Source: an endosymbiont of Galathealinum brachiosum (GTDB taxonomy: Bacteria; Pseudomonadota; Gammaproteobacteria; SZUA-229). Taken from it: a stretch of 64,000 nt of DNA. Below are positions 18,565-61,393 of the stretch, in pieces. The stretch is from positions 62,001 through 126,000 of the forward strand of contig QFXC01000008.1 in NCBI GenBank assembly GCA_003349885.1, in the 5' to 3' direction. A program made the position numbers and the translations under genes. The notes beneath the pieces are model-generated. The model ran no database searches. It worked only from the letters and a program-made list of their open reading frames with translations, and was not told the origin of the DNA. Each line of letters starts with the position of its first letter. The first letter of the stretch is position 1.

Positions 18565-20016
18565 ATGTATAAGTGGATGTTAATGCATATTTTACACGTC
18601 TTTCTATTTATTAGTAATGCCTATTCTGCCGAATATTTCGTTTCAAAAATAGGTGATGATGAATTTGTTGGATCTAAGCTATTACCTTGGCAAACAATTA
18701 ATGAATCGATTAATAAATTATCACCTGGTGATATATTAAATATTGCGGATGGTATTTATACTGAAAATATAGAGCCTACTGTAAGTGGTGAAGTACAAAA
18801 GCCTATATTAATACGTGCAACCAATCCATTTAAAGTAATAGTTGATGGTAATGGTAAAAATAGGGCCCTCTATATCACAAAAGTCAGTTATTTAAGCTTC
18901 GAAGGTATGAAGTTTCAAAATTCAGGTGATAAAGCTGTTTTACAGGTAAGTAGCTCTGATGGTCAACCTGCGGAAGGAAATACAGAAACTCATCATATAA
19001 TACTAAGAAAAATTTCTGTTAAAGGATCATGCTTAGATAAAAACTGCAGTGGTTTACTTATTGCTAGATCTAATGATGTTTTGTTAGAGGATTCGTGGGT
19101 CTATGGCGCAGGTCGTTATACCTTATCCGTTTATGGTGACAGGAAGGTAACAATACGTAGGGTTGTCGTAAGGTGGGATCAATGGGATGGTCATAAATAT
19201 AAAAAGAATGATCCTAGGAATGCTATAGGTATTTACAACAGTCATAATAATCTAATTGAAAATGTAATTATTCTTGATGCAGGTAAAAAACCCAGTGGTG
19301 CAGGAGGTGATAAAGGTGCATTGCTTATTGCAGGTGGAGCAAATAGAGATACCTCAGCATTTATAAATTCAAGTAATAACCGATTCTATGGGTTAATAAT
19401 ACATAATAACACAGGTTTAGCTATTTCGTTATCTTCTAGAGTAAAGGCGCACGATGGTAATTATTTTGAGAATGGGGTTATTTATGGAAATTCAAAACGT
19501 GCTATAACAATCAATAAGTTAGTAAAAAATACAACATTTAATCATATGACTTTAGCTAATCATCCTGATGAAGCATATGCAAATTGGTCTAAAGAATCTG
19601 AAAATACGGTATTAACTAATAGCCTTATTATGAATAATGAAAAAAAGGCCTTTATAGGTGATTTAGACGAAAGCTATAATATTGTTTACAGAAACAGACC
19701 TAATTATTCAAAGAATGAATCATTAGGTAAAGAAACGATAGTGGCTGATCCTAAAATATCATCAATATTTAATAATAACTCGAAAATTTTAAAGAAAAGA
19801 GTTGGTTCTGATGATAAGCCTCGTGGGGCTAACCTAATGAAACAGTATCATAATGGTGTAGAGACTAAAACTAATTTATGGCCGTGGCTGTATGAAGATG
19901 AAATATATAAAGATTTTTGTGCCCCAATGAGCTTAATTCAGCTTGATAGAATAGGGAGTAATACATCGTCTTGGTGTGATTCCAAGCTATCATTGACAAA
20001 TTATTTGCATAGATAA
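18565..20016 (+). CDS. Secreted right-handed parallel beta-helix protein (paralogue 1)
   Basis: A cleavable signal peptide (to about SNAYSA) is followed directly by a pectate-lyase-like beta-helix: EYFVSKIGDD, LLPWQTINESINKLSPGDILNIADGIY, then repeated coils with NNxIEN and NNRFYGLIIHNN. It is clearly related to the proteins at 34528-37260 and 37604-39211, sharing GDKGALLIAGG, DDKPRGANLM and the Trp/Cys-rich end WPWLYEDEIYKDFC. Unlike them it has no lipobox. Proteins of this fold in export loci act as polysaccharide lyases or epimerases. I cannot see which. It stands alone between an opposite-strand sulfotransferase and the amidotransferase gene. Confidence 0.78.
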   Translation: MYKWMLMHILHVFLFISNAYSAEYFVSKIGDDEFVGSKLLPWQTINESINKLSPGDILNIADGIYTENIEPTVSGEVQKPILIRATNPFKVIVDGNGKNRALYITKVSYLSFEGMKFQNSGDKAVLQVSSSDGQPAEGNTETHHIILRKISVKGSCLDKNCSGLLIARSNDVLLEDSWVYGAGRYTLSVYGDRKVTIRRVVVRWDQWDGHKYKKNDPRNAIGIYNSHNNLIENVIILDAGKKPSGAGGDKGALLIAGGANRDTSAFINSSNNRFYGLIIHNNTGLAISLSSRVKAHDGNYFENGVIYGNSKRAITINKLVKNTTFNHMTLANHPDEAYANWSKESENTVLTNSLIMNNEKKAFIGDLDESYNIVYRNRPNYSKNESLGKETIVADPKISSIFNNNSKILKKRVGSDDKPRGANLMKQYHNGVETKTNLWPWLYEDEIYKDFCAPMSLIQLDRIGSNTSSWCDSKLSLTNYLHR

Positions 20017-37603: not shown

Positions 37604-39211
37604 TTACTCTATAGAGCAGGTAGGTTTTTCAGCATCTAAGTCACATATATTATTAGGGCAGGTTTGATTAGTTGATGCCTCGAATAAATAGCGAGAAAGT
37701 GTAGCACTAGAATCACACCATTTAGCGGAGTTTGCTCCTGTACGGCCTAACTCATTCAATGTGGTTTGGTCACAGAAATCCTTTTTGATTAGATCTTCAT
37801 ATAACCAAGGCCATAAGTGTTGTTTAGACTCAATACCTCCATAATAGCGAAACAATAGGTTTGCTCCTCTTGCTTTATCATTATCACCAGGATTATTTAA
37901 CAAAGGAACGGTATCATTTTTAAAGACATAGAGTAGCTGTGGGTCTATTGATATTGATTGCTCACCTAGAGATCCATTATCATTATTACCAAAAACAACG
38001 TTGTAATTATTCGTGACTTCTCCAGAAATAGCGTTTGATCCATTGTCTAAAATAAGGCTATTTTTTAAGATATTACCTGTTGTTTCGCTAGAAAAGTTAC
38101 CATAACCACCATCAGGGTTATTAATCACTGACATATTATTAAATGTGGTGAATTCAACTCTTTTATTAATGGTAAGGCCTCGTTTAGTATTGTTGTAAAC
38201 AATACTATTTTCAAAATAGTTAAGATTATGTGGTGTACTGCGTCCAGATAAGGCTATGCCATGACCATTATTGTTATGAATCACCAAGCCATAAAAACGA
38301 TTGTTTTCTGAGCCAGTGAATGGTGCCGTATCACCATTGTCACCACCAGCTAATAATACAGCGCCTTTATCACCAGCCGTACCTGATGGTTTTTCACCGG
38401 CATCAATAATGACTATATTTTCGAATAAACTATCATGTGTATTGTATATTCCCAAAGCCTGTCGTGGGTCATCAGGTTTATAATCAGCACCAATCCATTC
38501 ATCCCAGCGTATAACGACTCTTCTTAAGTTTATATTACGGCTACCATAGATTGAAACGGTATATCGACCTGCACCATAAATCCATGAATCGGCAAATAAC
38601 ACGTCATTAGATCGAGCTATTAGTATCCCATTACAGTTTTTATTCAAACATGAGCCTTGTATTGCCATTTTACTCATAAATATATGATGTGTATCTGTAT
38701 TACCTGTTGAGGGTTGCCCATCACGACTATTTATTTCTAGGGTTGCTTTTTCACCGGCATTTTGTAAACGAAAACCTTCAAAGTATAAGTAGCTAACTTC
38801 AGTAATGTCTAGGGCAGGACCTTGAGAATCACCATCTATGACTACTTTAAATGGGTTTTCAGCACGTATAATTATAGGGTCCGTACTATTACCACTAATT
38901 GTAGGTTTTACATTTTCTAAATAGAATCCATCGGCTATTGTTAGAATATTACCAGGTTTAAGTTTCTCAATAGATTTTTGAATACCTTTCCAGGGCGAGC
39001 TTTCAGAGCCATCGGAGTTGTCATCACCGGTAGTAGATACAAAGTATTCGGTGTAATTTGAGGGCAGGTCACATAGAAACGCTTCTGTGGGAGAGTTAAA
39101 GAGATCCGCCTCTGTGGGAGAGTTAAAGAGATCCGCCTCACCAGTACAAGCGGTTATGAGGATTCCTACCACTAGTATTGACACTCCTAACTTTACTGCA
39201 TAATTAATCAT
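37604..39211 (-). CDS. Beta-helix lipoprotein (paralogue 3)
   Basis: The signal peptide ends in lipobox LITAC (about 18-22). The next residues contain a perfect nine-residue tandem repeat (EADLFNSPT twice). From about residue 54 the protein matches paralogue 2 closely: EYFVSTTGDDNSDGSESSPWKGIQKSIEKL, NNRFYGLVIHNN, GDKGAVLLAGGDNGDTAPFTGS. The end is the same Trp/Cys-rich WPWLYEDLIKKDFC and CPNNICD. It lacks the jelly-roll and fibronectin domains. The fold suggests a surface polysaccharide lyase or epimerase, and no catalytic residues can be named with confidence. Confidence 0.8.
   Translation of the reverse strand: MINYAVKLGVSILVVGILITACTGEADLFNSPTEADLFNSPTEAFLCDLPSNYTEYFVSTTGDDNSDGSESSPWKGIQKSIEKLKPGNILTIADGFYLENVKPTISGNSTDPIIIRAENPFKVVIDGDSQGPALDITEVSYLYFEGFRLQNAGEKATLEINSRDGQPSTGNTDTHHIFMSKMAIQGSCLNKNCNGILIARSNDVLFADSWIYGAGRYTVSIYGSRNINLRRVVIRWDEWIGADYKPDDPRQALGIYNTHDSLFENIVIIDAGEKPSGTAGDKGAVLLAGGDNGDTAPFTGSENNRFYGLVIHNNNGHGIALSGRSTPHNLNYFENSIVYNNTKRGLTINKRVEFTTFNNMSVINNPDGGYGNFSSETTGNILKNSLILDNGSNAISGEVTNNYNVVFGNNDNGSLGEQSISIDPQLLYVFKNDTVPLLNNPGDNDKARGANLLFRYYGGIESKQHLWPWLYEDLIKKDFCDQTTLNELGRTGANSAKWCDSSATLSRYLFEASTNQTCPNNICDLDAEKPTCSIE
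39084..39137 (-). repeat. Two perfect 27-base tandem repeats inside a lipoprotein gene
   Basis: Units 39084-39110 and 39111-39137 are identical. They encode nine residues each just after the lipid-bearing Cys, so copy-number change would keep the frame and only alter the tether length. Confidence 0.9.
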
Positions 39212-48002: not shown

Positions 48003-50975
48003 ATGCGAGTTAAAGGTGTGTGTGTGACAAATTATAAAAATGAGAACGGCAATAATTATAACAATAAATCATATAAATTTAGATACTTCATACCTAGAAA
48101 AATAAATATCAGTCGAATTAGTTTGTCCTTTAAATCAATTGTTTTATCTAGTTTATTGTTTACAGTTTTTCAATTGCAGGCTGAACCAGTACTGCATCCC
48201 GCTATACCCATTTTAGATGAAAATGGTTTGCATGTGCTCGATAGCCAGAAAGCCTACAGTGCTAAAATGACCTGTGGCACAGGTGGCTGTCATGATTACG
48301 AGGCTATTACTTCAGCTTTTCATTTTGAAATGGGAAGCAAGGAAGCAAGAGATGATTTTGGTAAAAACCACGGCGTATCTACATTAGTATCTCCCGGATA
48401 TTTCGGTGGTTATAATTGTATGAGTGGTAGTAACCCGGATACGCTTGCTAGTAAAGTGAACGTCAGCGAAGCAGATTTTAAAGATAAAGGTGTTGCTGGC
48501 TGGGTTCAACGTTGTTCAGGTTGTCACACAGGTGGTGGCTGGATGGAAAAAGATCGTAACGGTATTCGTTATGATGAAAAAGATCCCACAACTGTTGCTC
48601 ATCTTGATGGTGATTATTTTAATCGCGGTACTGATTCAAATAACCAGCCTGCTTCTGAAGATACCATTAGCCAGTGGGACTGGAAAAAAAGTGGTGTTGT
48701 AGAAGCTGACTGTTTCCTTTGTCATGCTGATTTTTCAGCATTGGTTAAAACAGATCCAGAAACAGCGGGTAATACGGATGATGCATTTGATCATGCTGAT
48801 GACATGCGTAATGATTATCTTATAGATGGTGGTTTCTTTAACTATGCGGGCACGGCCATTCTGGAATTCCTTAATCTGAATAACGGTGGTGATCCTGCCA
48901 ATGACAAAACCCTGCTTATTTTTGACCGTACCGCATCAACAGACAGTAGTGATCATATGGCTCCAGACTATACGTTGAATCTGAATGCAGATGGCAAACC
49001 AATACTTCACTGGAATGCCGATGCCTTTGTTGATGGTAAAGTAGAAATCCCCATGCTTCGTTTCCCTGAAAATGAAAACTGCATGAACTGTCATAGTACA
49101 AGTAATTCACGTCGTGGTTTTTACGGTTTTGGTGAAGAAGCTAGCGCTGTTTATGATGAAGAAGGAATGCTGGTAGAAGACTATCAGGACGATGTTCATA
49201 AAGGTTTAGAATGGACAGAAAACGGAGAGACACGTCCCATTGAAAACTGTAATGCCTGTCACTCAAGAAATTACTATAACTCACTAGCGAATACAGACAA
49301 TGTAGACCTTGATGCCAATCATAATTTCCTTAAGGGGAATTCTGATATGGATCTTCGTAATGATAAAGACTACAGCCCTAATGCCCTGAGTTGTGTTTAT
49401 TGTCATGAAACTGCAGAGAACCCTGCAATTCCTTCCCTGGAAGGATCTGATCTTGATAAAACGATGCTTAATGCTCACCTGGAAAAATGGAAAGCCAGTG
49501 GTGATATGGCTGGTTACACAGCAGATTCATTAACGCGTATTACACAATCTCATCTAGATGTTGTTAGCTGCCAGGCCTGTCATATTAATGACAAGGTTGC
49601 ACGTGGCAGAAGTATGCAAATCATGTTCCGTTACCGGCAGGAAGAGGATGGAAAATTAAAAATTGTTCCTTATGCGCAACGTGATCGTTATTACTGGAAA
49701 GATAAAAATACCAATACTATTTTAAACAAAACAGAACGTAACAGTGTGTTTGAATTACGTGGAGGCGATACATCTATGCCGGGCATGGTGATGCCATCTG
49801 ATGATATGTATGGTGTTATTGTAGATCCTGAGACGGGTGCTGAACTGGCAGAAGTTACTGCGCGTTTATCGCATGGCAGTATACGTTTTGGTGACCCTGA
49901 AGGTTATGCGGGTTATCTGGCGCTACGTAATGCATATAACAAAGTATTCAAGATAAAAGGTTTTGAGAATGCAGATGCCGTGATGGTATTAACTGAATCT
50001 AACCAGTACATCATGAATCACAATACGCGACCTGCTGTTGATTCATTGCAATGTGAAGATTGTCATGCAAATACACAACGTGGTTTTAGTGCATTAGTTG
50101 CAGATGATAGCGTATTTGGTTCTGCAAACTCTGCGACTATCTTTAGCCTGCCTGACGCTCGATTAATTAGTGAAGGCATTGTTGAGCTTGATAAACCTTA
50201 TATGAAAGCCAATGAGAATGAAGATGGTAGTGCAGATATTACACTTAATGTTTCTGATATTTTATATAGCACTCGCCTTAATCCTTCATTGAGTATTTTA
50301 AATGCCGACATTGCATCAGAAATGACTGGAATGGTTAACAAAGTTAGTCTTGCAGAAGCGGCTCGTCTTGCAAGTATAAGTAAGGCAGAGCATATCGACA
50401 TACTCTATCAGCAATCTGGCGATGAACTATTTGTATTCGCTCCTTTATATGGAGATCCATCTGTACGCAAAGTTGCAATAATGCCGATGGTTAACAATAC
50501 ATCAAATCTGATATTCCCTACTTATCAGTTCAGAATTTCGCTGGCAGATAATGATGTGGTGAATACAGCTGCAAATTCTGGATTTGGTGGTTTGAATGCA
50601 GATGTGTTTTCTTTACAGGCAACTGATGCAGATGGTGTTGATGTAAGTAGCTTTGGTAACAGTAATATACTAGTTAAATTACCTTACACTGGCACTGAAA
50701 ACAGTATTGAAAATATCAAACTAATTACGTCCGTCGACGGTAACGAGTGGGTAGATGTTAATGCTTCCGATATTTTGATCCTGAACCCTCAGACAGACAG
50801 TGAATATGGGTATCTGGTTTTTAAAACCAGTCATTTCAGTTTCTATACCATTACCCTTGCAGATGAAACAAATGTATCTGAACCTGTAGTGGAAGCGTCT
50901 TCATCAGGTGGTGGTTCAGCTCCCTGGTTGCTGATTTTACTTATCGGTTTATATCATTTGAGGGGTAGAAAATAA
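48003..50975 (+). CDS. Large octahaem c-type cytochrome with a GlyGly-CTERM-like surface-sorting tail
   Basis: The 990-residue protein has an unusually long basic n-region (about 40 residues) before a signal core ending near FQLQA. Seven CXXCH motifs (CSGCH, CFLCH, CMNCH, CNACH, CVYCH, CQACH, CEDCH) and one CX4CH (CGTGGCH, about residue 90) span residues 90-690. The last 250 residues are beta-rich without haem and end with a Ser/Gly stretch SSSGGGS, a hydrophobic helix PWLLILLIGLYHL and RGRK. That tripartite end is the arrangement of GlyGly-CTERM proteins processed by rhombosortase in gammaproteobacteria. The protein may therefore be displayed on the cell surface. It opens the cytochrome cluster and is 120 bases from the next gene. 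Confidence 0.85.
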   Translation: MRVKGVCVTNYKNENGNNYNNKSYKFRYFIPRKINISRISLSFKSIVLSSLLFTVFQLQAEPVLHPAIPILDENGLHVLDSQKAYSAKMTCGTGGCHDYEAITSAFHFEMGSKEARDDFGKNHGVSTLVSPGYFGGYNCMSGSNPDTLASKVNVSEADFKDKGVAGWVQRCSGCHTGGGWMEKDRNGIRYDEKDPTTVAHLDGDYFNRGTDSNNQPASEDTISQWDWKKSGVVEADCFLCHADFSALVKTDPETAGNTDDAFDHADDMRNDYLIDGGFFNYAGTAILEFLNLNNGGDPANDKTLLIFDRTASTDSSDHMAPDYTLNLNADGKPILHWNADAFVDGKVEIPMLRFPENENCMNCHSTSNSRRGFYGFGEEASAVYDEEGMLVEDYQDDVHKGLEWTENGETRPIENCNACHSRNYYNSLANTDNVDLDANHNFLKGNSDMDLRNDKDYSPNALSCVYCHETAENPAIPSLEGSDLDKTMLNAHLEKWKASGDMAGYTADSLTRITQSHLDVVSCQACHINDKVARGRSMQIMFRYRQEEDGKLKIVPYAQRDRYYWKDKNTNTILNKTERNSVFELRGGDTSMPGMVMPSDDMYGVIVDPETGAELAEVTARLSHGSIRFGDPEGYAGYLALRNAYNKVFKIKGFENADAVMVLTESNQYIMNHNTRPAVDSLQCEDCHANTQRGFSALVADDSVFGSANSATIFSLPDARLISEGIVELDKPYMKANENEDGSADITLNVSDILYSTRLNPSLSILNADIASEMTGMVNKVSLAEAARLASISKAEHIDILYQQSGDELFVFAPLYGDPSVRKVAIMPMVNNTSNLIFPTYQFRISLADNDVVNTAANSGFGGLNADVFSLQATDADGVDVSSFGNSNILVKLPYTGTENSIENIKLITSVDGNEWVDVNASDILILNPQTDSEYGYLVFKTSHFSFYTITLADETNVSEPVVEASSSGGGSAPWLLILLIGLYHLRGRK

Positions 50976-51009
50976 GACTAAACACTGATATCCCGTGAGG
51001 CTAGGACTT

Positions 51010-51038
51010 CAGTGGCTTTAAATACTATAAAGTCACTG
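51010..51038 (+). other. Stem-loop between the first cytochrome gene and the operon
   Basis: CAGTGGCTTTA (51010-51020) pairs with TAAAGTCACTG (51028-51038) around a seven-base loop with one G-U pair. No T run follows, so it is not a standard terminator. RNA processing or partial attenuation between 48003-50975 and the following genes is possible. Confidence 0.5.
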
Positions 51039-51095
51039 CATTCCAGATAAAAGTATTCGGAGTAGACGGTTTTTGTTTTTAATAATTTTATTATC

Positions 51096-51311
51096 ATGAA
51101 ACAGAATAGTAAAAAATTAACATTTAATAAAATAATGCCCTGGATGGCCGGGGCGGGTTTTGCACTTGGCCACATAGCAGTAACCAGTAATTGCACATTA
51201 ACAACACAAGGGCGATGTATTAGTTGTGGTAGTTGTGTTGTTGCATTAGGTTCTATCGTAATATGGGCAAAGATGAAAAAGCGCCGAGACGATTTTTATA
51301 TTGGTGACTAG
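51096..51311 (+). CDS. Small Cys-rich membrane protein in the cytochrome operon
   Basis: This 71-residue protein has two hydrophobic helices (about 13-30 and 46-58) joined by a loop containing SNCTLTTQGRCISCGSC, i.e. four Cys with a CXXCXXC group. A basic tail (KMKKRRDD) suggests both ends are in the cytoplasm and the Cys loop is in the periplasm or the membrane edge. No family is recognised. The Cys pattern could bind a metal or iron-sulfur cluster, or act in thiol redox for haem attachment. Its stop TAG shares its last base with the GTG start of the next gene, so it is probably real and coupled. Confidence 0.65.
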   Translation: MKQNSKKLTFNKIMPWMAGAGFALGHIAVTSNCTLTTQGRCISCGSCVVALGSIVIWAKMKKRRDDFYIGD

Positions 51312-52606
51312 TGAAAGACTTAAAATTCTTCACTATTTGTACGATGATTCTTAGTTATTCCCCCAGTGTATACAGCCAGGTTTCAGGAAGGCTGGATACA
51401 CTTATCGAAACAGATCAAACTGAATTTTATAACAGAAGCCTGATTGAAGAACAGGCAGAAATAAACTGGCGTAATAAGTCGGAAAATATGAATGCAGGTT
51501 TTCAGGCTGATATTAGATACCATGAACTTGATGATCAAACTCATTTGCAAGGTGAATTAGATCAACAGATTAATCAATTATTTTTATCTCATAATATACA
51601 GAATATTAATTATACAGTAGGCCGATTTGATCGTTCTGATCTGCTAGGTTTTTATACTCTAGATGGTTTGATAGCCAATTATGTTAATAAAAGCTGGACT
51701 GCCAGTTTTCATGCTGGAACTCCACGTCAACTTGAAGATTATAATATTATTGAAGTAAACAGAATCCTTGGTCTGGATTTTAACAATCAGCAGACTGGTA
51801 TAAGTAATGCGATTGTCCAGAATGTAAATAGCTATTTTGGATGGCAACAGTTACAGGATGAAGTGACTCAAAATTATATCCATCTTGGAATATCAGGTAG
51901 TGGAAATTTAAACAATACAAATATAGACAATAAAAAAATATCTAAAAATAAATTAAGCCAGATTAAAATGTTTATCAATGGCAGCTATTTAATTGAAAAT
52001 AAAAGTGCTGAATCAATAAATGCAGGCGTTCAATATAACGATAAAGAATTTGGACTAAGTCGTATCAGCTATACAAGCTGGAAACCAGAAGAGGCTGAGT
52101 TAAGTTTTAAAGAACAATTTTATTCAGTTTTTTCAAATAGCAAACAATCTATTTTACAGGCGGATATCTTTCATAAACATAAATGGGATCAACAATACTA
52201 TGTTCGTGGTCGAAAAGTATGGCGTGAAACAGGCGGTGATGGTGTCGGACTTACTTTTGGATTTGAACAACAGGCCGTATTTGATAAAAAAACAGGGTGG
52301 ATAGCTCAGTGGGATAGTCTGGCGATAAAACATGACAGTATTCACAGTCTCTACCTGAGTAGCAATAGAAATATATCTGCCAGTTTGCGTGGTCACCTTG
52401 ATACAGCTTTACAATATCAAAAAAATGATACAGTAGATAACGATAGTATTGTTGCTCTGCAGATAGGTGCAGAGAAGATGATTCAATCTGATGTGTATAT
52501 CGACTTCAATCTACGATACATATACAACAGTAATCTGGATGATGAATACCGATTTGGCTTTAGATTCAGTTATCGGTTCGATGATAGAGTGTGGATAAGA
52601 CCATGA
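51311..52606 (+). CDS. Outer-membrane beta-barrel porin of the cytochrome operon
   Basis: A signal peptide (to about SVYSQ) precedes some 410 residues of amphipathic strands with aromatic edges and frequent Asn/Asp turns, e.g. AEINWRNKSENMNAGFQADIRYHEL, SLYLSSNRNISASLRGHLDTALQYQ, and a terminal FGFRFSYRF. No CXXCH is present. Its place directly before cytochrome genes is the order of porin-cytochrome conduits such as MtrB/ExtI-type systems, where a barrel surrounds a cytochrome. I cannot show homology to those, only fold type and context. Start is GTG; the following gene overlaps by four bases (ATGA). Confidence 0.7.
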   Translation: MKDLKFFTICTMILSYSPSVYSQVSGRLDTLIETDQTEFYNRSLIEEQAEINWRNKSENMNAGFQADIRYHELDDQTHLQGELDQQINQLFLSHNIQNINYTVGRFDRSDLLGFYTLDGLIANYVNKSWTASFHAGTPRQLEDYNIIEVNRILGLDFNNQQTGISNAIVQNVNSYFGWQQLQDEVTQNYIHLGISGSGNLNNTNIDNKKISKNKLSQIKMFINGSYLIENKSAESINAGVQYNDKEFGLSRISYTSWKPEEAELSFKEQFYSVFSNSKQSILQADIFHKHKWDQQYYVRGRKVWRETGGDGVGLTFGFEQQAVFDKKTGWIAQWDSLAIKHDSIHSLYLSSNRNISASLRGHLDTALQYQKNDTVDNDSIVALQIGAEKMIQSDVYIDFNLRYIYNSNLDDEYRFGFRFSYRFDDRVWIRP

Positions 52607-53235
52607 TAAAGAGCATTTTCATTATATTGCTTTTTATGCTGTCGCTTTCATCTCAGGCTGAAACGGATAATTTGTCTAAAGTTAAAGCCGAAGTTAAAAA
52701 AGAAAAAAGTTGGTGGCAGAAACGCCATGATAGAACTGATTTATTTTATCCTCATAAAGCTCATATGGATGTTATGGAAGATGAGGGTGATGCCTGTATG
52801 TTATGCCATCCATTTAGTAAAAATAGTATTCAGGATAAAAAAGAACACGAGAAACTTAATCAGATAAACAATGAAGCACTAGAAGCTATTTGTCATGATT
52901 GTCATGTAGAAAAAATAACAGCACCATCTGAGTGTCGGCTTTGTCACCCAGATCCATCTACTGTCTGGCCAGATGATCATAACTACAACTATACATTTTT
53001 TCATGCTGAAGATGCGCAGACCAATCAGCAGGCCTGTACAGAATGTCATAAACAGTTGTCTTTTTGTACAGATTGTCATTTTAAACGTAATTATAGTGGC
53101 GGTTACTCCAGCACTAAAGTGCATCGTCTAGGTTATAAGTCAATGCATGGACTGGATGCGAGAATTGCACCCGCAGATTGTGGAAGCTGTCACCAGGTAA
53201 AATACTGCACTGATTGTCACCGGAGAATAAAATAA
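52603..53235 (+). CDS. Periplasmic heptahaem c-type cytochrome
   Basis: I choose the ATG at 52603, which overlaps the TGA of the porin gene (ATGA). An upstream GTG at 52591 is less likely. A signal peptide (IKSIFIILLFMLSLSSQAE) is followed by seven CXXCH motifs: CMLCH, CHDCH, CRLCH, CTECH, CTDCH, CGSCH, CTDCH, spread over about 140 residues. The spacing and the 210-residue size suit a compact periplasmic or barrel-embedded electron wire. It is directly after the barrel gene, where MtrA-like cytochromes are often encoded. The next gene's ATG shares a base with its stop (TAATG). Confidence 0.87.
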   Translation: MIKSIFIILLFMLSLSSQAETDNLSKVKAEVKKEKSWWQKRHDRTDLFYPHKAHMDVMEDEGDACMLCHPFSKNSIQDKKEHEKLNQINNEALEAICHDCHVEKITAPSECRLCHPDPSTVWPDDHNYNYTFFHAEDAQTNQQACTECHKQLSFCTDCHFKRNYSGGYSSTKVHRLGYKSMHGLDARIAPADCGSCHQVKYCTDCHRRIK

Positions 53236-54206
53236 TGTTACGTCTATTATTTTTCTCTATTCTGATTTTTGTTGCTGCCTGTAATAACGATGAAGAACAT
53301 GATGAGTCGACAACAGACACGGATATTTTACTAAATACTAATCATGGCGGTGCGGGTTCTGCCTGGGGTTTATCTGATTGTGATGCCTGTCATGCACTAG
53401 GCGTCGTTCATCAAAATGAACCGGCTATTCGTGACATAGTGAAAGTTAATGGATATGAAACCTGTACAGGTTGCCATGGCAGTAATGGAACAGATGCACC
53501 TCGCCAGTGTCTAGTTTGTCATAATGAAAATGACTTACCTGAAGCGCCTCTTCAATCCGGTCTACATAAACATGATTTTGATACGGGTGCGGATAATGAA
53601 TTAGAGGATCAACAATGTATAGACTGTCATTATGCTTCAGATATGGATGGCGTGTTTAATAATAACCGTGACCTGACACGTTACGCTGATTCAAGTGGCG
53701 TTAATTCACCTTATTCAAATGGTACTGACTTTTGTCTGCGATGTCATAATCGTGATCATCAACAGGCTGATTTTCCTATTACAGATAAAGTTTTTGATGA
53801 TCCTTTAATTGCCATTGAAGACACCTACACATTTATAGATAAACACGGGGAAATTAATTCAGCTGGCAGCGGAACCTATGCAGGTTTACGCAATAATTAT
53901 GTTTATAGCAGCCGGGTTGAATGCACCGACTGCCATGCGATGCATGGTACAACTAATAGCAGGTTAATAATTGATCGGTCTGATAAGGGCACTAGCAAGC
54001 TTGATTTATCACTACGTGATCTGCCTCACTCAGTAAAAATAACCGCTGATGATTTTTCTCAGTTATGCGTGCTCTGTCATGATATGGAGACACTTCAGGA
54101 TGAAGGTGATGTAGATACAGGTAATGGCCTTACAGGTGTCCATCTAACAGGAAGTAGCTGTATAGAGTGTCATAGTCATGGCGAAGCAATTCAGGCGGGC
54201 CTGTAA
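53235..54206 (+). CDS. Octahaem lipoprotein cytochrome c
   Basis: The ATG at 53235 begins MLRLLFFSILIFVAAC, so the lipobox is FVAAC with the Cys at residue 16. Eight CXXCH motifs follow: CDACH, CTGCH, CLVCH, CIDCH, CLRCH, CTDCH, CVLCH and CIECH. Long Asp/Asn/Gly-rich stretches between motifs (e.g. NNNRDLTRYADSSGVNSPYSNG) resemble outer-membrane cytochromes. As a lipoprotein next to a barrel and a heptahaem cytochrome it is the best candidate for the outer-face terminal of a conduit, but its orientation cannot be told from sequence. Coupled by TAATG on both sides. Confidence 0.87.
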   Translation: MLRLLFFSILIFVAACNNDEEHDESTTDTDILLNTNHGGAGSAWGLSDCDACHALGVVHQNEPAIRDIVKVNGYETCTGCHGSNGTDAPRQCLVCHNENDLPEAPLQSGLHKHDFDTGADNELEDQQCIDCHYASDMDGVFNNNRDLTRYADSSGVNSPYSNGTDFCLRCHNRDHQQADFPITDKVFDDPLIAIEDTYTFIDKHGEINSAGSGTYAGLRNNYVYSSRVECTDCHAMHGTTNSRLIIDRSDKGTSKLDLSLRDLPHSVKITADDFSQLCVLCHDMETLQDEGDVDTGNGLTGVHLTGSSCIECHSHGEAIQAGL

Positions 54207-55078
54207 TGATTCGATTATGCCTGCTTTTGTTTTTATTTTTATCTACTTCAGCTTATGCTAAAGGTGATCAGGAAATGCCAGCTATGCATCACCTGTATAA
54301 GGTTGAACCTTCAAAAGAAATATCAATTCCAGATGACTTCCCATTGAATAAAAATAAGGAAATTGATTGCCAGACCTGTCATGGTATTGAAGATATGAAG
54401 CAGCAGGATTTTGAAAAAATTGATAAAAAATCAAATGATTTTTTTCGTGAAGGGCCTTATGACAAAATTACAGACTTTTGTTATCGCTGTCATGATACAA
54501 AGCCGTATCAGCGGGATAATATTCATAAAATGCTGGATGAAGAGAATAAAATTATTAAAAAGACCTGTCTTTATTGTCATGAAAAACAGTTAGATCCTGA
54601 AGATGACTTAGAAAAGTCGGAACTTAAATTACGTCTGGAACCAGAGAATATATGTTATGGCTGTCATTTAGATATACCTCACTTTAATGCGCTTAATCAT
54701 CAAATAAAACCAGATGATGAAATGCAAAAGAGAATCAGTGACTATGAGAAGGAGCATAAAATAATTTTACCGCTATCAGAAGCAGGCAAGATAATGTGTG
54801 TAACCTGTCACAGCCCACATGAGCTTGATGTAATCAGTCAGAATAAACCCGCTGGAAAACAGGTTGTTAATAATGATCTTGATAAAGGTATAACGTATAG
54901 CAAACATAAATGGAATGACGTTTTTAATAAAGATAAAAAGGACAGGCTTAATAAGTTTAATTTGAAATCATCAAAAGCACATATTTTAAATTATCAACGT
55001 ATTGAAAAAGAAATTTTATTAAGACTGCCTGCAAAAGACGGGGCGCTTTGTCTGGCATGCCACGAGTTTGAAAAATAA
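54206..55078 (+). CDS. Periplasmic hexahaem c-type cytochrome
   Basis: A cleavable signal (MIRLCLLLFLFLSTSAYAKG) is followed by six CXXCH motifs: CQTCH, CYRCH, CLYCH, CYGCH, CVTCH and, near the C-terminus, CLACH. The NIT/NapC-like membrane anchor is missing, so it is soluble in the periplasm. The segment VTCHSPHELDV resembles DmsE/nitrite-reductase-family 'CHxPH' motifs. It may carry electrons from the inner-membrane complex encoded next to the outer-membrane proteins. The next start is one base after its stop. Confidence 0.83.
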   Translation: MIRLCLLLFLFLSTSAYAKGDQEMPAMHHLYKVEPSKEISIPDDFPLNKNKEIDCQTCHGIEDMKQQDFEKIDKKSNDFFREGPYDKITDFCYRCHDTKPYQRDNIHKMLDEENKIIKKTCLYCHEKQLDPEDDLEKSELKLRLEPENICYGCHLDIPHFNALNHQIKPDDEMQKRISDYEKEHKIILPLSEAGKIMCVTCHSPHELDVISQNKPAGKQVVNNDLDKGITYSKHKWNDVFNKDKKDRLNKFNLKSSKAHILNYQRIEKEILLRLPAKDGALCLACHEFEK

Positions 55079-55079
55079 T

Positions 55080-57287
55080 ATGAGAATAATACAAAACATT
55101 TTAGATATACCTAAAGAACAGAAAATACGTTATCTGATTATCATTGCATCCTGCCTTCTGTTTTTTGCACCTTTTGCTTTTATACCCGGTGCAGTAGGTA
55201 ATGATGACTTGTGTGGAAAGATGTGTATGCGACGATTTTTTCTCTATTTTCCCGGCATGACACTAGAGGATTTAACAATGGCAATTACTGTAGCCTGGAT
55301 GGGGGTTATATTATTATTTAGCATTTTCCTAACAACATTTTTTTACGGGCGTTTATGGTGTTCATATATTTGTCCTGTAGGTGGTTTCCCTGAGCTTGTC
55401 AGTCGTACACTGAGTGATCGTTGGAAAATAGAATATCGTTCTCTGCCACAGGTTCCAATACGTTACGGATATTTTGCAGTTTATGTCTTACTTATGCCAA
55501 CACTGGGCATTAGTGCCTGTACCTTGTGTAACTTTATAACCGTACCTCGACTGTTTGAGTCAATGAGTGGAGGCATGCGTGGTTTTGCATATATATTTTC
55601 TACCATCGGTCTCGTTAATCTTGCATTACTTATACTTTTAGGTTTTTTTGCCAGCAAGGGTAGAGCTTATTGTCAGTTTCTTTGTCCTATCGGAGCGATG
55701 GATGGGTTGATTAATCGTATGGGTGCTAAGTTACGCTTTACGCGAAGAATACGGGTGGAGCGTGATCGTTGTACAGGCTGTAATATCTGTGCACGTAATT
55801 GCATGACAGGTGCCATAAAAATGGTTGATCGAGTTGCAGTTGTTGATCAACTCTCCTGCATGTCATGTAATGAATGTGTGAATGTTTGTGACTGGCATGC
55901 AATAGACTGGCTAGCTTTGCCACCAGACAATCAACCTAAACGTAAAAAGAAAGGCATTGATTTCCATCCATTACCTGATTGGGAAGCTGTTTACATTGTT
56001 AAGCCTGAAGCTAAAGGGCTTAAAGCTGTTAACTGGCAACGGGTGTTTATTGGCGTTATTTTGGGATTGGCCATTTCATTTGTTTTTATCACCCAGGTGC
56101 AGGCCAAGCAGCGCCAGACAGATCCAGATGGCTGTTTCGCCTGTCATGCGCTTGAAGGACTTGAGTATATTGATGAGAAAGGTGTTCTGCGAAATTCAAC
56201 CATTAATCAACAACATTATCTCAGTTCATTACATGGCAGTGTTCCCTGCAAAGACTGTCATCGAGAAATAAAGGATTTTCCTCATAAAGTTGAGAACGGT
56301 GAAGTTGATTGTGCTGAATCCTGTCACCTTGAAGAACCATCTGAAGGTGAGGCGTATACGCACAAAAAAGCAACTGAGGTATTCGAAAAATCAACACATG
56401 GTGAGGGCTGGAGCAAAGGTTTTACGGGTGGAAATAGATTAAAAGAATCAGAGGAAGAACAAAACCCATCATGCCGATTATGTCATCAGAATAGTTTATA
56501 TATAGATCCAGAAAAAATGCCTGAATTTAAAGCGGCATTTGATCATACCGAATCAGAATGTGGAAGTTGTCATCAGGGAGAAACATGGCTTAACCAGTTT
56601 GGTGGTCATATTATGCGACGTTTTCTTTCCGGCAGACAGAGTAAACAGGACGAAAACAAAATGTGTGATAACTGCCATGCAAATAAAGAACGTATGGCAA
56701 AAGTTGAAGTTGAAGACAAAGAAACAGGTATAAAACATAAAGTAGGCAGCAAATTTATTCTTGCAAGTAATTCTTATGAAAGAACGCTGCATGGCCGATT
56801 GTTAGCCAACAATGATGATCATGGTGTTTCGTGTAATGATTGTCATACCCCAGGAAAAGACAGACATGCAATCTTCAATCATAAACTGATCAGCGCATCA
56901 ACACATAAAGATAATCTTGATAAAACCTGCTCGGCTTCAGGATGCCATAATTATTCTAAAAAATATATAAACTCAGCTTTTACCCAAACAGATATGCATG
57001 ATCTGGATTATGTACCTGTATATGAAAGAATTATCTCATCGGAAGCACTTAACTTAAATTCCGGATGGAAACTATTTCTAGCATTTTTTATTCCAATAAT
57101 AATAATACTGACTATTGGTTCTATTATATGGAGTTTATTTTCAAAACGAAGTAAGTCTGTTGTTTTTTCTCTGTTTGGTGGAAATCATTTCCAGGAAAAG
57201 ATAATTGGAAGAAAACCGAAATCAAAAGTTAAAGCTTCTAAGTTTAAAAAGAAAAAACAGACTATACAGCGAGGGCAGGATAAATGA
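55080..57287 (+). CDS. Fusion of a NapH-like iron-sulfur membrane protein and an octahaem cytochrome
   Basis: The start is the ATG at 55080, one base after the previous stop. A TTG four codons upstream is less likely. The N-terminal half (about 1-350) is NapH/NosR-like: four or five membrane helices, two CX3CP motifs (CSYICP, CQFLCP) and two 4Fe-4S groups (RDRCTGCNICARNCMTG and LSCMSCNECVNVCDW). After a membrane helix at about 320-340 come six CXXCH motifs plus two unusual ones, CX3CH (CAESCH) and CX4CH (CSASGCH). Another membrane helix lies at about 660-685, then a basic tail. The layout could take electrons from quinol through FeS centres into periplasmic haems in one chain. Confidence 0.83.
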   Translation: MRIIQNILDIPKEQKIRYLIIIASCLLFFAPFAFIPGAVGNDDLCGKMCMRRFFLYFPGMTLEDLTMAITVAWMGVILLFSIFLTTFFYGRLWCSYICPVGGFPELVSRTLSDRWKIEYRSLPQVPIRYGYFAVYVLLMPTLGISACTLCNFITVPRLFESMSGGMRGFAYIFSTIGLVNLALLILLGFFASKGRAYCQFLCPIGAMDGLINRMGAKLRFTRRIRVERDRCTGCNICARNCMTGAIKMVDRVAVVDQLSCMSCNECVNVCDWHAIDWLALPPDNQPKRKKKGIDFHPLPDWEAVYIVKPEAKGLKAVNWQRVFIGVILGLAISFVFITQVQAKQRQTDPDGCFACHALEGLEYIDEKGVLRNSTINQQHYLSSLHGSVPCKDCHREIKDFPHKVENGEVDCAESCHLEEPSEGEAYTHKKATEVFEKSTHGEGWSKGFTGGNRLKESEEEQNPSCRLCHQNSLYIDPEKMPEFKAAFDHTESECGSCHQGETWLNQFGGHIMRRFLSGRQSKQDENKMCDNCHANKERMAKVEVEDKETGIKHKVGSKFILASNSYERTLHGRLLANNDDHGVSCNDCHTPGKDRHAIFNHKLISASTHKDNLDKTCSASGCHNYSKKYINSAFTQTDMHDLDYVPVYERIISSEALNLNSGWKLFLAFFIPIIIILTIGSIIWSLFSKRSKSVVFSLFGGNHFQEKIIGRKPKSKVKASKFKKKKQTIQRGQDK

Positions 57288-58000
57288 GACCATTAATATA
57301 TTCAGTTATTCTGTACTCGTTTTTCTTATCTGTAAATGCTCAGCCACTTTACTTGAAACAATTTAATAACTCTAAAGTTGATGATAAGAAGATTGAGGAA
57401 GCCCATAAACAGATAAAAGAGCATTCAGAAATAGAGGTGAAAGATAACTTGTTTGTTCAGTCATTTCACAAACAAAATTCTAAAATAGAGACTGATAAGC
57501 ATTCTTTTTGTATCTCCTGTCATCAGCAGAAACCACATAAGTTAAATAAAAGAAAAAGAAGCTTTCTGAATATGCACAGTGATTATATAAGCTGTGAAAC
57601 GTGTCATTTCGTGCCTAAAAACACATTACTTACATACGAGTGGTTTAATTTTAATAATGATAGTAACAAGGTGTCTGCAAATCGAATTGTTCCTTTATTT
57701 AATAATAAACCAGTCATTTTATTAGATAACCATGAACTGGCTTTAAAAATAAAAAAAGAATGGAAAAACAAACCTTCGTTTGAAAAAGCTGGTCTTAAAT
57801 ATCGTTTGCATACACCTCTTAGTAAAAAAGGACCAGATTGCATGGGTTGTCATAATAACAAAGATCAATTGATTGATCTGGTTCCGCTTGGCTTTAAAGA
57901 AAAAGAAATTAAGAAACTACAACAGCATTCAATACCAAGGTTTTTCAGTCGGTTTACTAAAGATGATCAGCGATTACGTATGACTGATTTATTGCAATGA
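57284..58000 (+). CDS. Trihaem c-type cytochrome, small periplasmic
   Basis: A signal peptide (to about SVNAQ) is followed by a 238-residue protein with CISCH, CETCH and CMGCH. It is basic and Lys-rich, and no other domain is recognised. The ATG overlaps the previous TGA (ATGA), and its own stop overlaps the next start (ATGA). With only three haems in a large protein it may be an accessory or linking subunit. Confidence 0.75.
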   Translation: MRPLIYSVILYSFFLSVNAQPLYLKQFNNSKVDDKKIEEAHKQIKEHSEIEVKDNLFVQSFHKQNSKIETDKHSFCISCHQQKPHKLNKRKRSFLNMHSDYISCETCHFVPKNTLLTYEWFNFNNDSNKVSANRIVPLFNNKPVILLDNHELALKIKKEWKNKPSFEKAGLKYRLHTPLSKKGPDCMGCHNNKDQLIDLVPLGFKEKEIKKLQQHSIPRFFSRFTKDDQRLRMTDLLQ

Positions 58001-60465
58001 TAGTTAAAGTTAAACAACTTTTAGCTGCATTAATATTGTTATCGATATTATTTAGCCAATATATTATGGCTGATATCACTGCGAATAAATTATTCTCTAT
58101 TAAATCAGGGTTAAATCAGCCAACAGATATAGCCGTTTCTCATGATGGCAGCATTTATAGTCTAAATGGTGTATTGAGCAAGGTAATAGTTTTTTCCAAT
58201 GATGGTAAGCATAAATTCGATTTTGGTAAAGCGGGAAAGGGTGATGCTGAATTAGATTTACCTATGGCTATAGCAATAAATAACAGGTTTGTATATATAG
58301 CCGATACAGGTAATGGCCGGATTTCGATTTACAATCTGCAGGGAGAATTTATTAGAGTTATAACTCTAACCTCAAACAAATCAGAAATAAAAAAGGTTTC
58401 TCCCGTTTCTCTACTGATAATGGATAAAAATATATTATGGAGTGATCGTCAGAACCATCAAATATGTGTCAGTAAGATAAGCGATGGAAAAACCTTGAGA
58501 TGCTGGGGAAAAAAAGGTGATGCAGAAGGGCAATTCAATTTTCCATATCAATTAGTTGCTGATTCTCAGGGTTATGTGTTTGTTGTTGATGTGCTTAATT
58601 CTCGAATTCAGGCGTTTAGTTCAAGGGGTAAGCATTTTATGAATACTGGGAGTTTTGGTGTCAATATACCAGGTTCGTTATTCAGGCCTAATGGACTGGT
58701 ATTAACTAAAGATAACTATTTAATGGTCAGTGATGCCTACCTTGGTAGAATTTCTGTTTTCAAAAATGGTAAACCGTTAGGTTTACTTACAAATGAATCA
58801 GGTAAACACCTGGTATTTAAGTCGCCTACAAGCCTAACGTTGAATAAATCACGTATTTATGTAACGGATACATTAAATAATAGTATTGATGTTTTTAATG
58901 TAAGTACAAATAATAAAAAAACAACCAATAAAAAATCATTTGATAAACCAGAATCAGGTAGTTCACAAAAAAACTGTATCACCTGTCATATATCATGGGC
59001 AGATAATTTTTCAATAGATCATCAGACTGATTTTCCTGTTTCTCCTGTTGCGCATCAGGACATGTGTTATAGCTGTCATCACGGTGTTGTTATAGATTCA
59101 AGGAAAGATATAGGTCATAAAGAGCAGCACCCTGATATCCATCACAAACGAAAAGAAATAAAGAAAAACTCAGATAAAAACAAAGATAAAATTCCAAAAG
59201 AATTTCCTGTTGTTATTCATAAGTCACATAACAAGCATGATATTTACTGTGGCAGTTGTCATACACCACACAAGCTTGAAACAGATAAACCTGCAAACCT
59301 TAATGATGAACATAATAATAGCTGGATGCGTGAGAAAAATAAAAGTAGTGAAATTTGTCTCTCGTGCCATGAATCAAAAATCGACCATATACAGGATAAA
59401 TCACGCTCAAATAAAGGAATAAATCATCCTGTTGGCTTGTATTTAAAGCAGGCTGAACCGGTAAGAAAAAATAAACAATATTACGCAAGAGATAAAAACC
59501 TGCATAAAGGTTTACCTGATGAATTAACTAAAGCAGGTGCTACTACAAACAATAAGAATCAGATGATTTGCCAAAGCTGTCATAAAGTCCATGGTACTGA
59601 AGAAGAATCACTAACGGCTATTCAATCAGTAAATGCAAAAATTTGTCAACAGTGTCATCAGAGGCATGTGGCAGAAGATCTTATATCAGCTCGCAAAAAA
59701 GGAGTTCATCCAGTTAATATAAAACTGGATGAGCCGGTAAAGATTAACGGTAAAGAGATTGAAATAATAACCTGTCTAACCTGTCATGCCCCTCATAATG
59801 GAAAAAAAGACAGTGCACTACTTGTTGTAGATGATAAAAATGGTGAGCTCTGTAATGCATGCCATGAAAATTATAATAAGCTTGTAAACACTAAACATGA
59901 TCTACGTTTAAGTGCAGAGAAAAGTAAAAACAGTTTTGACAAAACACCGGAGGAGGCTGGTTCATGTGGTAGTTGTCATAGCATGCATGAGGTTTCAGAT
60001 AAAATACTATCGTTAGATGCGACAGAATTAGCTACATATAAAGGAAATGAAAAGCCACTTAATCGAGACCAGGCTTGTTTAAACTGTCATCGTAAAGAGG
60101 GTGTTGCTGACAAATCTCAAATAAAATTCTTTAGTCATCCTACGAACAATATTATCTTACGGTCAGACAAAAATAACATGCCACTAGTAGATAATAAAAA
60201 TGAAATAAATGAATTTGGTGAAATAGCCTGTATTACCTGCCATAACCCTCATAGATGGTCGGGCCATAAAGCAATTGAAGATGAGGAGATTAAAAAAGAA
60301 AAACCTGAAAAACAGGTTAATGGTAATGTGCAAAGTAGCTTTTTAAGAAATAAGGCTATTCAGGATTCGTTCTGTAAGGATTGCCATGGTATTGAAACGT
60401 CAATGAGGTATAAGTATTATCATCTTGAATTATCACGCAAAATTAAAGATCAACAACACAAGTGA
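57997..60465 (+). CDS. NHL beta-propeller/dodecahaem cytochrome c
   Basis: A signal peptide (to about QYIMA) precedes an NHL-type six-bladed propeller at about 33-300, with repeats such as NQPTDIAVSHDGSIYS, DLPMAIAINNRFVYIADTGNGRISIYN, FPYQLVADSQGYVFVVDVLNSRIQAF and FRPNGLVLTKDNYLMVSDAYLGRISVF. Residues 326-795 carry twelve CXXCH motifs, several as CHxPH or CHxxH. NHL domains bind ligands or proteins, and similar NHL/cytochrome fusions are known near porin-cytochrome clusters in Desulfuromonadota, so an extracellular or outer-membrane role is possible. It has no lipobox or anchor. The last gene of the operon, coupled by ATGA. Confidence 0.85.
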   Translation: MIVKVKQLLAALILLSILFSQYIMADITANKLFSIKSGLNQPTDIAVSHDGSIYSLNGVLSKVIVFSNDGKHKFDFGKAGKGDAELDLPMAIAINNRFVYIADTGNGRISIYNLQGEFIRVITLTSNKSEIKKVSPVSLLIMDKNILWSDRQNHQICVSKISDGKTLRCWGKKGDAEGQFNFPYQLVADSQGYVFVVDVLNSRIQAFSSRGKHFMNTGSFGVNIPGSLFRPNGLVLTKDNYLMVSDAYLGRISVFKNGKPLGLLTNESGKHLVFKSPTSLTLNKSRIYVTDTLNNSIDVFNVSTNNKKTTNKKSFDKPESGSSQKNCITCHISWADNFSIDHQTDFPVSPVAHQDMCYSCHHGVVIDSRKDIGHKEQHPDIHHKRKEIKKNSDKNKDKIPKEFPVVIHKSHNKHDIYCGSCHTPHKLETDKPANLNDEHNNSWMREKNKSSEICLSCHESKIDHIQDKSRSNKGINHPVGLYLKQAEPVRKNKQYYARDKNLHKGLPDELTKAGATTNNKNQMICQSCHKVHGTEEESLTAIQSVNAKICQQCHQRHVAEDLISARKKGVHPVNIKLDEPVKINGKEIEIITCLTCHAPHNGKKDSALLVVDDKNGELCNACHENYNKLVNTKHDLRLSAEKSKNSFDKTPEEAGSCGSCHSMHEVSDKILSLDATELATYKGNEKPLNRDQACLNCHRKEGVADKSQIKFFSHPTNNIILRSDKNNMPLVDNKNEINEFGEIACITCHNPHRWSGHKAIEDEEIKKEKPEKQVNGNVQSSFLRNKAIQDSFCKDCHGIETSMRYKYYHLELSRKIKDQQHK

Positions 60466-60979: not shown

Positions 60980-61393
60980 ATGTTGTTTAAAATGTCAGGA
61001 ATTATTATATTTCTGCTCATGTTAACGGGCTGTACTGAGCCGCCCTACACTAATCTAGATAACGCTCAATTAAAATTAATGATTGATAAAGGTATACCTG
61101 TTTATGATGTACGCCGTGTTGATGAATGGCGTCAAACAGGTGTAATTAAAGGAAGTAAGCTTCTTACAATTATCAGTAGTGAAGCCAGAGTTAATCCTGA
61201 ATTTATGCCTAACTTTACCCGTGCTAATGATATCAATAGCCAGGTCATTCTAATTTGTCGTACAGGTAATCGTACTCGAAAATTAGCAACTTATTTGATA
61301 GAAAATTATGGCTATAAGAATATTTATAATGTACAGAATGGTATTTCACACTGGATTCGTGAAGGAAATAGTGTCGTTCAGGCCAGAATTTAA
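60980..61393 (+). CDS. Rhodanese-like lipoprotein
   Basis: The signal ends in lipobox MLTGC (about 14-18), so this is probably a periplasmic lipoprotein. The rhodanese domain includes IPVYDVRRVDEWRQTGVIKGSKLLTI, the active-site loop LICRTGNRTRKLA with the catalytic Cys, and NIYNVQNGISHWIREG. At 137 residues it is a single catalytic domain. In Geobacter extHIJKL clusters a rhodanese lipoprotein (ExtH) accompanies a porin-cytochrome conduit, so its place after the cytochrome operon is notable, although a 514-base gap lies between. It may handle sulfur species. A ribosome site (GAGG) precedes the ATG. Confidence 0.82.
   Translation: MLFKMSGIIIFLLMLTGCTEPPYTNLDNAQLKLMIDKGIPVYDVRRVDEWRQTGVIKGSKLLTIISSEARVNPEFMPNFTRANDINSQVILICRTGNRTRKLATYLIENYGYKNIYNVQNGISHWIREGNSVVQARI

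What the first reader, a model, noticed from the sequence alone, without database searches (positions are those of the whole stretch)
48003..60465. Putative new electron conduit: seven multihaem cytochromes with a barrel, a NapH-type protein and a small Cys-rich protein
I count 52 haem motifs (8+7+8+6+8+3+12) in seven proteins in 12.5 kb, with ATGA/TAATG or 1-base junctions throughout the operon from 51096. The set covers each compartment: an inner-membrane FeS/octahaem entry, soluble periplasmic cytochromes, a barrel, a lipoprotein cytochrome, and two candidate exported proteins. It does not match Mtr, Omc or Cyc2 layouts that I know. Direction of electron flow and substrate (metals, sulfur, partner cells, electrode) are unknown.
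Basis: partly seen in the sequence, partly recalled or inferred. Interest (0 to 1): 0.88.

Follow-up and report, generated by a model that had tools for sequence, protein, structure and literature searches.

The report
Multihaem wire through the cell envelope
A sulfur-oxidising gammaproteobacterium carries a nine-gene set whose products look like a chain of haem proteins running from the inner membrane, through an outer-membrane barrel, to the cell surface; the same set occurs in more than 40 relatives, including the methane-eater Methylococcus capsulatus, where it was described in 2015 but never tested directly.

Summary
Seven multihaem proteins (49 CXXCH plus 3 atypical motifs = 52) lie at 48003-60465 with a 431-residue protein that models as a closed 22-strand barrel (pLDDT 88), a NapH-type/octahaem membrane protein and a 71-residue protein with four conserved Cys. 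The genes form one unit: the order A-I recurs in over 40 gammaproteobacterial loci, haem motifs are essentially invariant, and distances between genes correlate at 0.84-0.97.

It is not a new layout. The Methylococcus capsulatus Texas copy has eleven genes, eight multihaem cytochromes and 58 CXXCH motifs, exactly the published MCA0424-MCA0433 operon of strain Bath (PMC4831470), whose A homologues were found on the cell surface and which was already proposed to pass electrons outward, without biochemical proof. Deleting its neighbour MCA0421 lowers current to anodes (PMC6281684).

New here: wide occurrence in sulfur-oxidiser lineages, sorting-signal tails on the surface cytochrome with a rhombosortase in the genome, a NapH-octahaem fusion, octahaem-diflavin-reductase fusions in two methanotroph loci that favour outward flow, and a related cluster using cytochrome b561 instead of NapH. 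Best reading: a trans-envelope electron conduit, more likely outward. Substrate and direction in this organism are unknown. New member of a known but uncharacterised kind.

The parts
48003..50975 (+). A: surface multihaem cytochrome, 7 CXXCH + 1 CX4CH, C-terminal Gly-rich/TM/basic sorting tail
   Evidence: homologues MCA0424/MCA0426 detected on the M. capsulatus surface (PMC4831470)
51096..51311 (+). B: 71-aa small membrane protein, four invariant Cys (C33, C41, C44, C47)
   Evidence: present in every relative where the A-C interval is held
51311..52606 (+). C: 22-strand outer-membrane beta-barrel without plug domain
   Evidence: AlphaFold2 pLDDT 87.7, 22 strands; Foldseek/VIA matches to OM barrels
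52591..53235 (+). D: periplasmic heptahaem cytochrome (start probably ATG 52603), candidate barrel-lumen partner
   Evidence: 7 motifs, 40/40 conserved; Sec-like signal
53214..54206 (+). E: octahaem cytochrome, lipobox VAAC in this lineage (start probably ATG 53235)
   Evidence: lipobox absent in Methylococcales
54206..55078 (+). F: periplasmic hexahaem cytochrome
55068..57287 (+). G: NapH-like 4-TM iron-sulfur domain fused to TM-anchored periplasmic octahaem domain (6 CXXCH + CX3CH + CX4CH)
   Evidence: split into two genes in about half of the loci
57284..58000 (+). H: periplasmic trihaem cytochrome
57997..60465 (+). I: NHL beta-propeller plus dodecahaem cytochrome
   Evidence: 12 motifs, 30/30 conserved

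Best explanation
The nine genes encode a trans-envelope electron conduit of the kind described as the MCA0424 system of Methylococcus capsulatus. Electrons enter at the inner membrane through the NapH-like iron-sulfur part of G (probably from quinol), reach G's periplasmic octahaem domain, cross the periplasm on H, F and possibly I, pass the outer membrane in or at barrel C with D (and E), and leave at the cell surface through A, which is anchored by a processed C-terminal sorting tail. Net flow is more likely outward, as an electron outlet to minerals, electrodes or other extracellular acceptors. Shown here: gene set, order, conserved haem motifs, barrel model, sorting-like tail and rhombosortase gene. 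Inferred: surface anchoring of A, the order of electron transfer, which cytochrome sits in the barrel, direction and substrate.
For: The A-I order is conserved in more than 40 loci with essentially invariant haem motifs and correlated gene distances of 0.84-0.97. C models as a 22-strand barrel. A tails: two relatives carry JDVT-CTERM over cut-off, others are Gly-rich/TM/basic like GlyGly-CTERM, and the genome has a rhombosortase at 149 bits, cut-off 84. G topology has 4 TM + cytoplasmic ferredoxin + TM + periplasmic octahaem + TM. In M. capsulatus Texas and one other Methylococcaceae locus the octahaem protein is fused to a flavodoxin/FAD/NAD-binding reductase, which suggests NAD(P)H as donor and so outward flow. 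Orthologous MCA0424 and MCA0426 are on the cell surface and the operon is up-regulated without copper (PMC4831470); M. capsulatus reduces ferrihydrite and makes anodic current, partly lost without neighbouring MCA0421 (PMC6281684).
Against: No member of A-I has been deleted or purified in anything I found; MCA0421 is next to the operon, not part of it. The window host is a probable autotrophic sulfur oxidiser (dsrA, two RuBisCO genes, three COX1-family genes), so electron uptake is possible. The haem core of A modelled poorly (mean pLDDT 65.5), and the window's own tail of A is below the curated cut-offs of the sorting-signal models. No complex was modelled.
Confidence: 0.62

Rival explanations
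1. The same conduit runs inward: a sulfur-oxidising autotroph takes electrons from extracellular donors (Fe(II), metal sulfides, sulfur, partner cells) to quinone or oxidase.
For: Host has dsrA, RuBisCO and COX1-family oxidases; several relatives are Sedimenticolaceae, Chromatiales and Thiotrichaceae; multihaem conduits can run both ways (general knowledge).
Against: Diflavin reductase fusions and the NapH-type entry point to NAD(P)H or quinol as donor; the only physiological data near an ortholog are anodic.
Confidence: 0.17
2. Assimilatory metal reduction: the surface cytochromes reduce Fe(III) or Cu(II) chelates to help uptake under copper or iron starvation.
For: The M. capsulatus operon is copper-repressed and sits in a cluster with TonB genes and a putative Fur box (PMC4831470).
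Against: TonB genes are not seen as part of the conserved set around A-I; 52 haems and a whole trans-envelope route is much for uptake; no Fur consensus in the window at up to 3 mismatches.
Confidence: 0.1
3. A surface enzyme for one soluble substrate (for example a sulfur oxyanion), with A as the catalytic subunit.
For: A matches the octahaem tetrathionate reductase family weakly (TIGR04315, 1e-12, 47.8 bits) and has a conserved atypical first haem motif.
Against: Score is far below that family's cut-off of 375; no solved-structure homologue by profile; M. capsulatus has two A copies and further surface cytochromes beside the operon, as a terminal-acceptor branch would.
Confidence: 0.08

Closest known systems
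Methylococcus capsulatus Bath MCA0424-MCA0433 operon (copper-responding cluster 1)
   Same: Same genes in the same order; in strain Texas 11 genes, 8 multihaem cytochromes and 58 CXXCH, the numbers published for Bath.
   Different: One copy of A instead of two; NapH and octahaem fused in the window, separate in M. capsulatus; M. capsulatus octahaem carries a diflavin reductase; I has 12 not 14 haems; A carries a sorting-like tail here and none there.
Shewanella MtrCAB / Rhodopseudomonas PioAB
   Same: Logic: periplasmic cytochrome, barrel, surface cytochrome.
   Different: Barrel not of the MtrB_PioB family, 22 strands; no decahaem MtrA or MtrC family member; inner-membrane entry is NapH-like, not CymA.
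Geobacter sulfurreducens OmcB and ExtABCD/EFG/HIJKL conduits
   Same: Barrel plus several cytochromes in one cluster; small protein next to the barrel in ExtHIJKL (PMC6148476, PMC5877670).
   Different: No matching gene order; Ext clusters have cytochrome b/Rieske or hydrogenase genes downstream; the rhodanese lipoprotein next to the window cluster is not conserved with it.
b561-type cousin cluster in the same family (L039-L046)
   Same: Homologous octahaem, trihaem, F-like and NHL/12-haem modules.
   Different: Cytochrome b561 instead of NapH, 24-haem protein, peptidyl-prolyl isomerase; no homologue of A, B, C or E detected.

Membership tests
M. capsulatus MCA0424-type operon | Gene order surface cytochrome, small protein, barrel, D, E, F, NapH, octahaem, trihaem, NHL-multihaem | tested here: met
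M. capsulatus MCA0424-type operon | Eleven genes, eight multihaem cytochromes, 58 CXXCH (checked on strain Texas as stand-in for Bath) | tested here: met
   the window member has nine genes, seven cytochromes, 49 CXXCH
M. capsulatus MCA0424-type operon | Surface location of A and copper-repressed expression | not testable with these tools
   published for M. capsulatus only (PMC4831470)
MtrCAB/PioAB porin-cytochrome | MtrB_PioB family barrel (PF11854) | tested here: not met
   C has no Pfam hit; none over cut-off in the genome
MtrCAB/PioAB porin-cytochrome | DmsE/MtrA decahaem and OmcA/MtrC decahaem families (TIGR03508, TIGR03507) | tested here: not met
   best scores 44.8 of 192.2 and 26.4 of 209.3 bits
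Geobacter ExtHIJKL-type | Rhodanese lipoprotein, porin, small protein and pentahaem gene order | tested here: not met
   rhodanese 60980-61393 follows the cluster in the window only
NapH ferredoxin | Score over cut-off of TIGR02163 / NF007013 | tested here: not met
   69.3 of 213 and 59.5 of 234 bits; Fer4_5 domain over cut-off: NapH-like only
GlyGly-CTERM / rhombosortase sorting | Tail over cut-off of a sorting-signal model | tested here: inconclusive
   window tail MYXO-CTERM 15.3 of 20 bits; relatives L052, L053 JDVT-CTERM over cut-off
GlyGly-CTERM / rhombosortase sorting | Rhombosortase in the genome (TIGR03902) | tested here: met
   149.2 bits, cut-off 84; 0 of 14 control genomes over cut-off
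Octahaem tetrathionate reductase | TIGR04315 over cut-off | tested here: not met
   47.8 of 375 bits for A

The most novel reading that the evidence does not exclude
A distinct and widespread gammaproteobacterial class of outer-membrane conduit, without detectable sequence kinship to MtrB and ending in a sortase-anchored surface cytochrome, with exchangeable inner-membrane inlets: NapH-type iron-sulfur protein, cytochrome b561, or a diflavin NAD(P)H reductase that would feed cytoplasmic NAD(P)H electrons straight to the cell exterior without quinone.
Probability: 0.35. Interest if true: 0.75.

Novelty: new member of a known kind. Interest (0 to 1): 0.5.

Why it matters
One conserved gene set links the unexplained surface cytochromes of methanotrophs with uncultured sulfur oxidisers from vents and sediments. 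It gives defined targets (barrel C, surface protein A, octahaem G) in a genetically tractable host, M. capsulatus, to test how aerobic methane and sulfur oxidisers exchange electrons with minerals when oxygen is scarce.

Tried and rejected
Profile searches of A and C against solved structures gave nothing; D and E gave only weak small-cytochrome matches. The structure model of A is too weak in its haem core to name a fold (Foldseek best E 3e-3). No MtrB/PioB barrel appeared among the structural matches listed for C, which does not exclude kinship. The 1-haem counts shown for separate NapH genes are a CxxCH inside a ferredoxin motif, not haem sites. The Methylobacter four-gene MtrA/MtrB cluster (PMC13322032) is a different system. 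Ext-type kinship through the rhodanese was considered and dropped. No paper in the held library joins rhombosortase with multihaem cytochromes, and only two name MCA0424-type genes.

Full report
Check of the observation. The window is part of a 3.77-Mb gammaproteobacterial genome (G000, contig C8). ORFs A-I lie at the stated places. The rest of the window is nearly free of such motifs. In up to 44 relatives every motif of D, E, F, G, H and I is kept in all sequences, and those of A in 34-36 of 36, so the count reflects real haem sites rather than chance.

What the parts are. A is a surface-type multihaem cytochrome. Its C-terminus ends SSSGGGSAPWLLILLIGLYHLRGRK, a Gly-rich/TM/basic tail seen in many relatives, replaced by a JDVT-CTERM signal over cut-off in two and absent in Methylococcales and some Sedimenticola. 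The genome encodes a rhombosortase (149.2 bits, cut-off 84, none of 14 control genomes over cut-off). The window tail itself stays below curated cut-offs, so this sorting is inferred. B is a short membrane protein with four invariant cysteines. C models as a closed 22-strand barrel with pLDDT 87.7; its best structural matches are outer-membrane barrels, including 22-strand TonB-dependent transporters (Z 19.8 at rmsd 3.9 over 349 residues). It has no Pfam family. D, E, F and H are 7-, 8-, 6- and 3-haem proteins with export signals; E has a lipobox here. G joins a NapH-like part (Fer4_5 over cut-off; TIGR02163 69 of 213 bits) to an octahaem domain flanked by two TM helices, which places the ferredoxin part in the cytoplasm and the haems in the periplasm (hydropathy only). 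I joins an NHL propeller to 12 haems.

Distribution. A search with G found the full cluster in two of the other 36 genomes of the same family (G035, G020) and, in a named collection, 45 loci from Sedimenticola, Chromatiales MAGs, Candidatus Venteria (Thiotrichaceae), Thiolapillus, Methylobacter and other Methylococcales, and Methylococcus capsulatus Texas. Gene order is kept. Pairwise distance matrices of the nine genes correlate at 0.84-0.97, highest for C with D (0.97), in line with inheritance as a unit. This correlation also reflects shared species history.

Link to known work. The Texas locus has A', B, A, C, D, E, F, NapH, octahaem, H and I: eleven genes, eight multihaem cytochromes, 7+7+7+8+6+6+3+14 = 58 CXXCH. 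Larsen and Karlsen describe for strain Bath a putative operon from MCA0424 of eleven genes with eight multihaem cytochromes and 58 CxxCH, with barrel MCA0427, MCA0424 and MCA0426 on the cell surface, all cytochromes up-regulated without copper, and suggest electron transfer to the exterior while stating that biochemical evidence is missing (PMC4831470). Tanaka et al. show ferrihydrite reduction and anodic current by Bath cells and a partial loss on deletion of MCA0421 (PMC6281684); that gene lies beside the operon and is not a member of A-I. The assignment rests on strain Texas standing in for Bath.

Mechanism. The arrangement fits a chain quinol, NapH-like part, octahaem, periplasmic carriers, barrel with D and/or E, A. 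In M. capsulatus Texas and locus L080 the octahaem protein continues after its last TM helix into flavodoxin, FAD- and NAD-binding domains, which by topology lie in the cytoplasm and suggest NAD(P)H as an electron source; this favours outward flow. In other genomes of the family a related cluster has the octahaem, trihaem, F-like and NHL/multihaem modules next to cytochrome b561 instead of NapH, without detected homologues of A, B, C or E. So the inner-membrane inlet seems exchangeable. The window host carries dsrA, two RuBisCO large-subunit genes and three COX1-family genes, which suggests an aerobic sulfur-oxidising autotroph; uptake of electrons can therefore not be ruled out.

Verdict. The cluster is real, conserved and conduit-like, and belongs to a kind already described once but not characterised. 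The wide distribution, the sorting tails, the NapH-octahaem fusion and the reductase fusions are the additions made here; I found no paper on them in the held library, which does not cover most subscription journals. (The 2004 M. capsulatus genome paper, PMC517821, does mention a gene with a flavodoxin domain in this region.)

Noticed in passing
L039-L046 (genomes G015, G023, G025, G035, G026, G031, G007): Related clusters with cytochrome b561, a 24-haem protein, an 11-haem protein, separate NHL proteins and a PPIC-type isomerase; G035 has both cluster types.
   Followed up: partly
window 48003-50975, residues about 766-956 of A: C-terminal domain of A resembles ZU5/GAIN-type folds (Z 10.0, 3.2 A, 133 residues) and ends in a conserved HFS (residues 944-946) like the self-cleaving sites of those domains; absent in Methylococcales.
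   Followed up: no
L037:3198-7288 and equivalents in L050-L062, L075, L077: A second conserved block follows I in many relatives: Ig-like/carboxypeptidase-regulatory protein, a 322-337-residue Phenol_MetA_deg-type protein, AhpC/TSA proteins and a dihaem cytochrome; not seen after I in the window.
   Followed up: partly
window 60980-61393: Rhodanese-domain lipoprotein right after the cluster, not conserved there in relatives.
   Followed up: partly
window about 51009-51039: Eleven-pair hairpin in the 120-bp gap between A and B, perhaps setting different levels of A and the rest.
   Followed up: no
G000:C8:130325-131668 (4.3 kb beyond the window end): COX1-family oxidase gene about 8 kb downstream of the cluster.
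   Followed up: no
window 18565-20016, 34528-37260, 37604-39211: Three paralogous secreted proteins sharing a domain, inside an exopolysaccharide region that starts near 2571.
   Followed up: no
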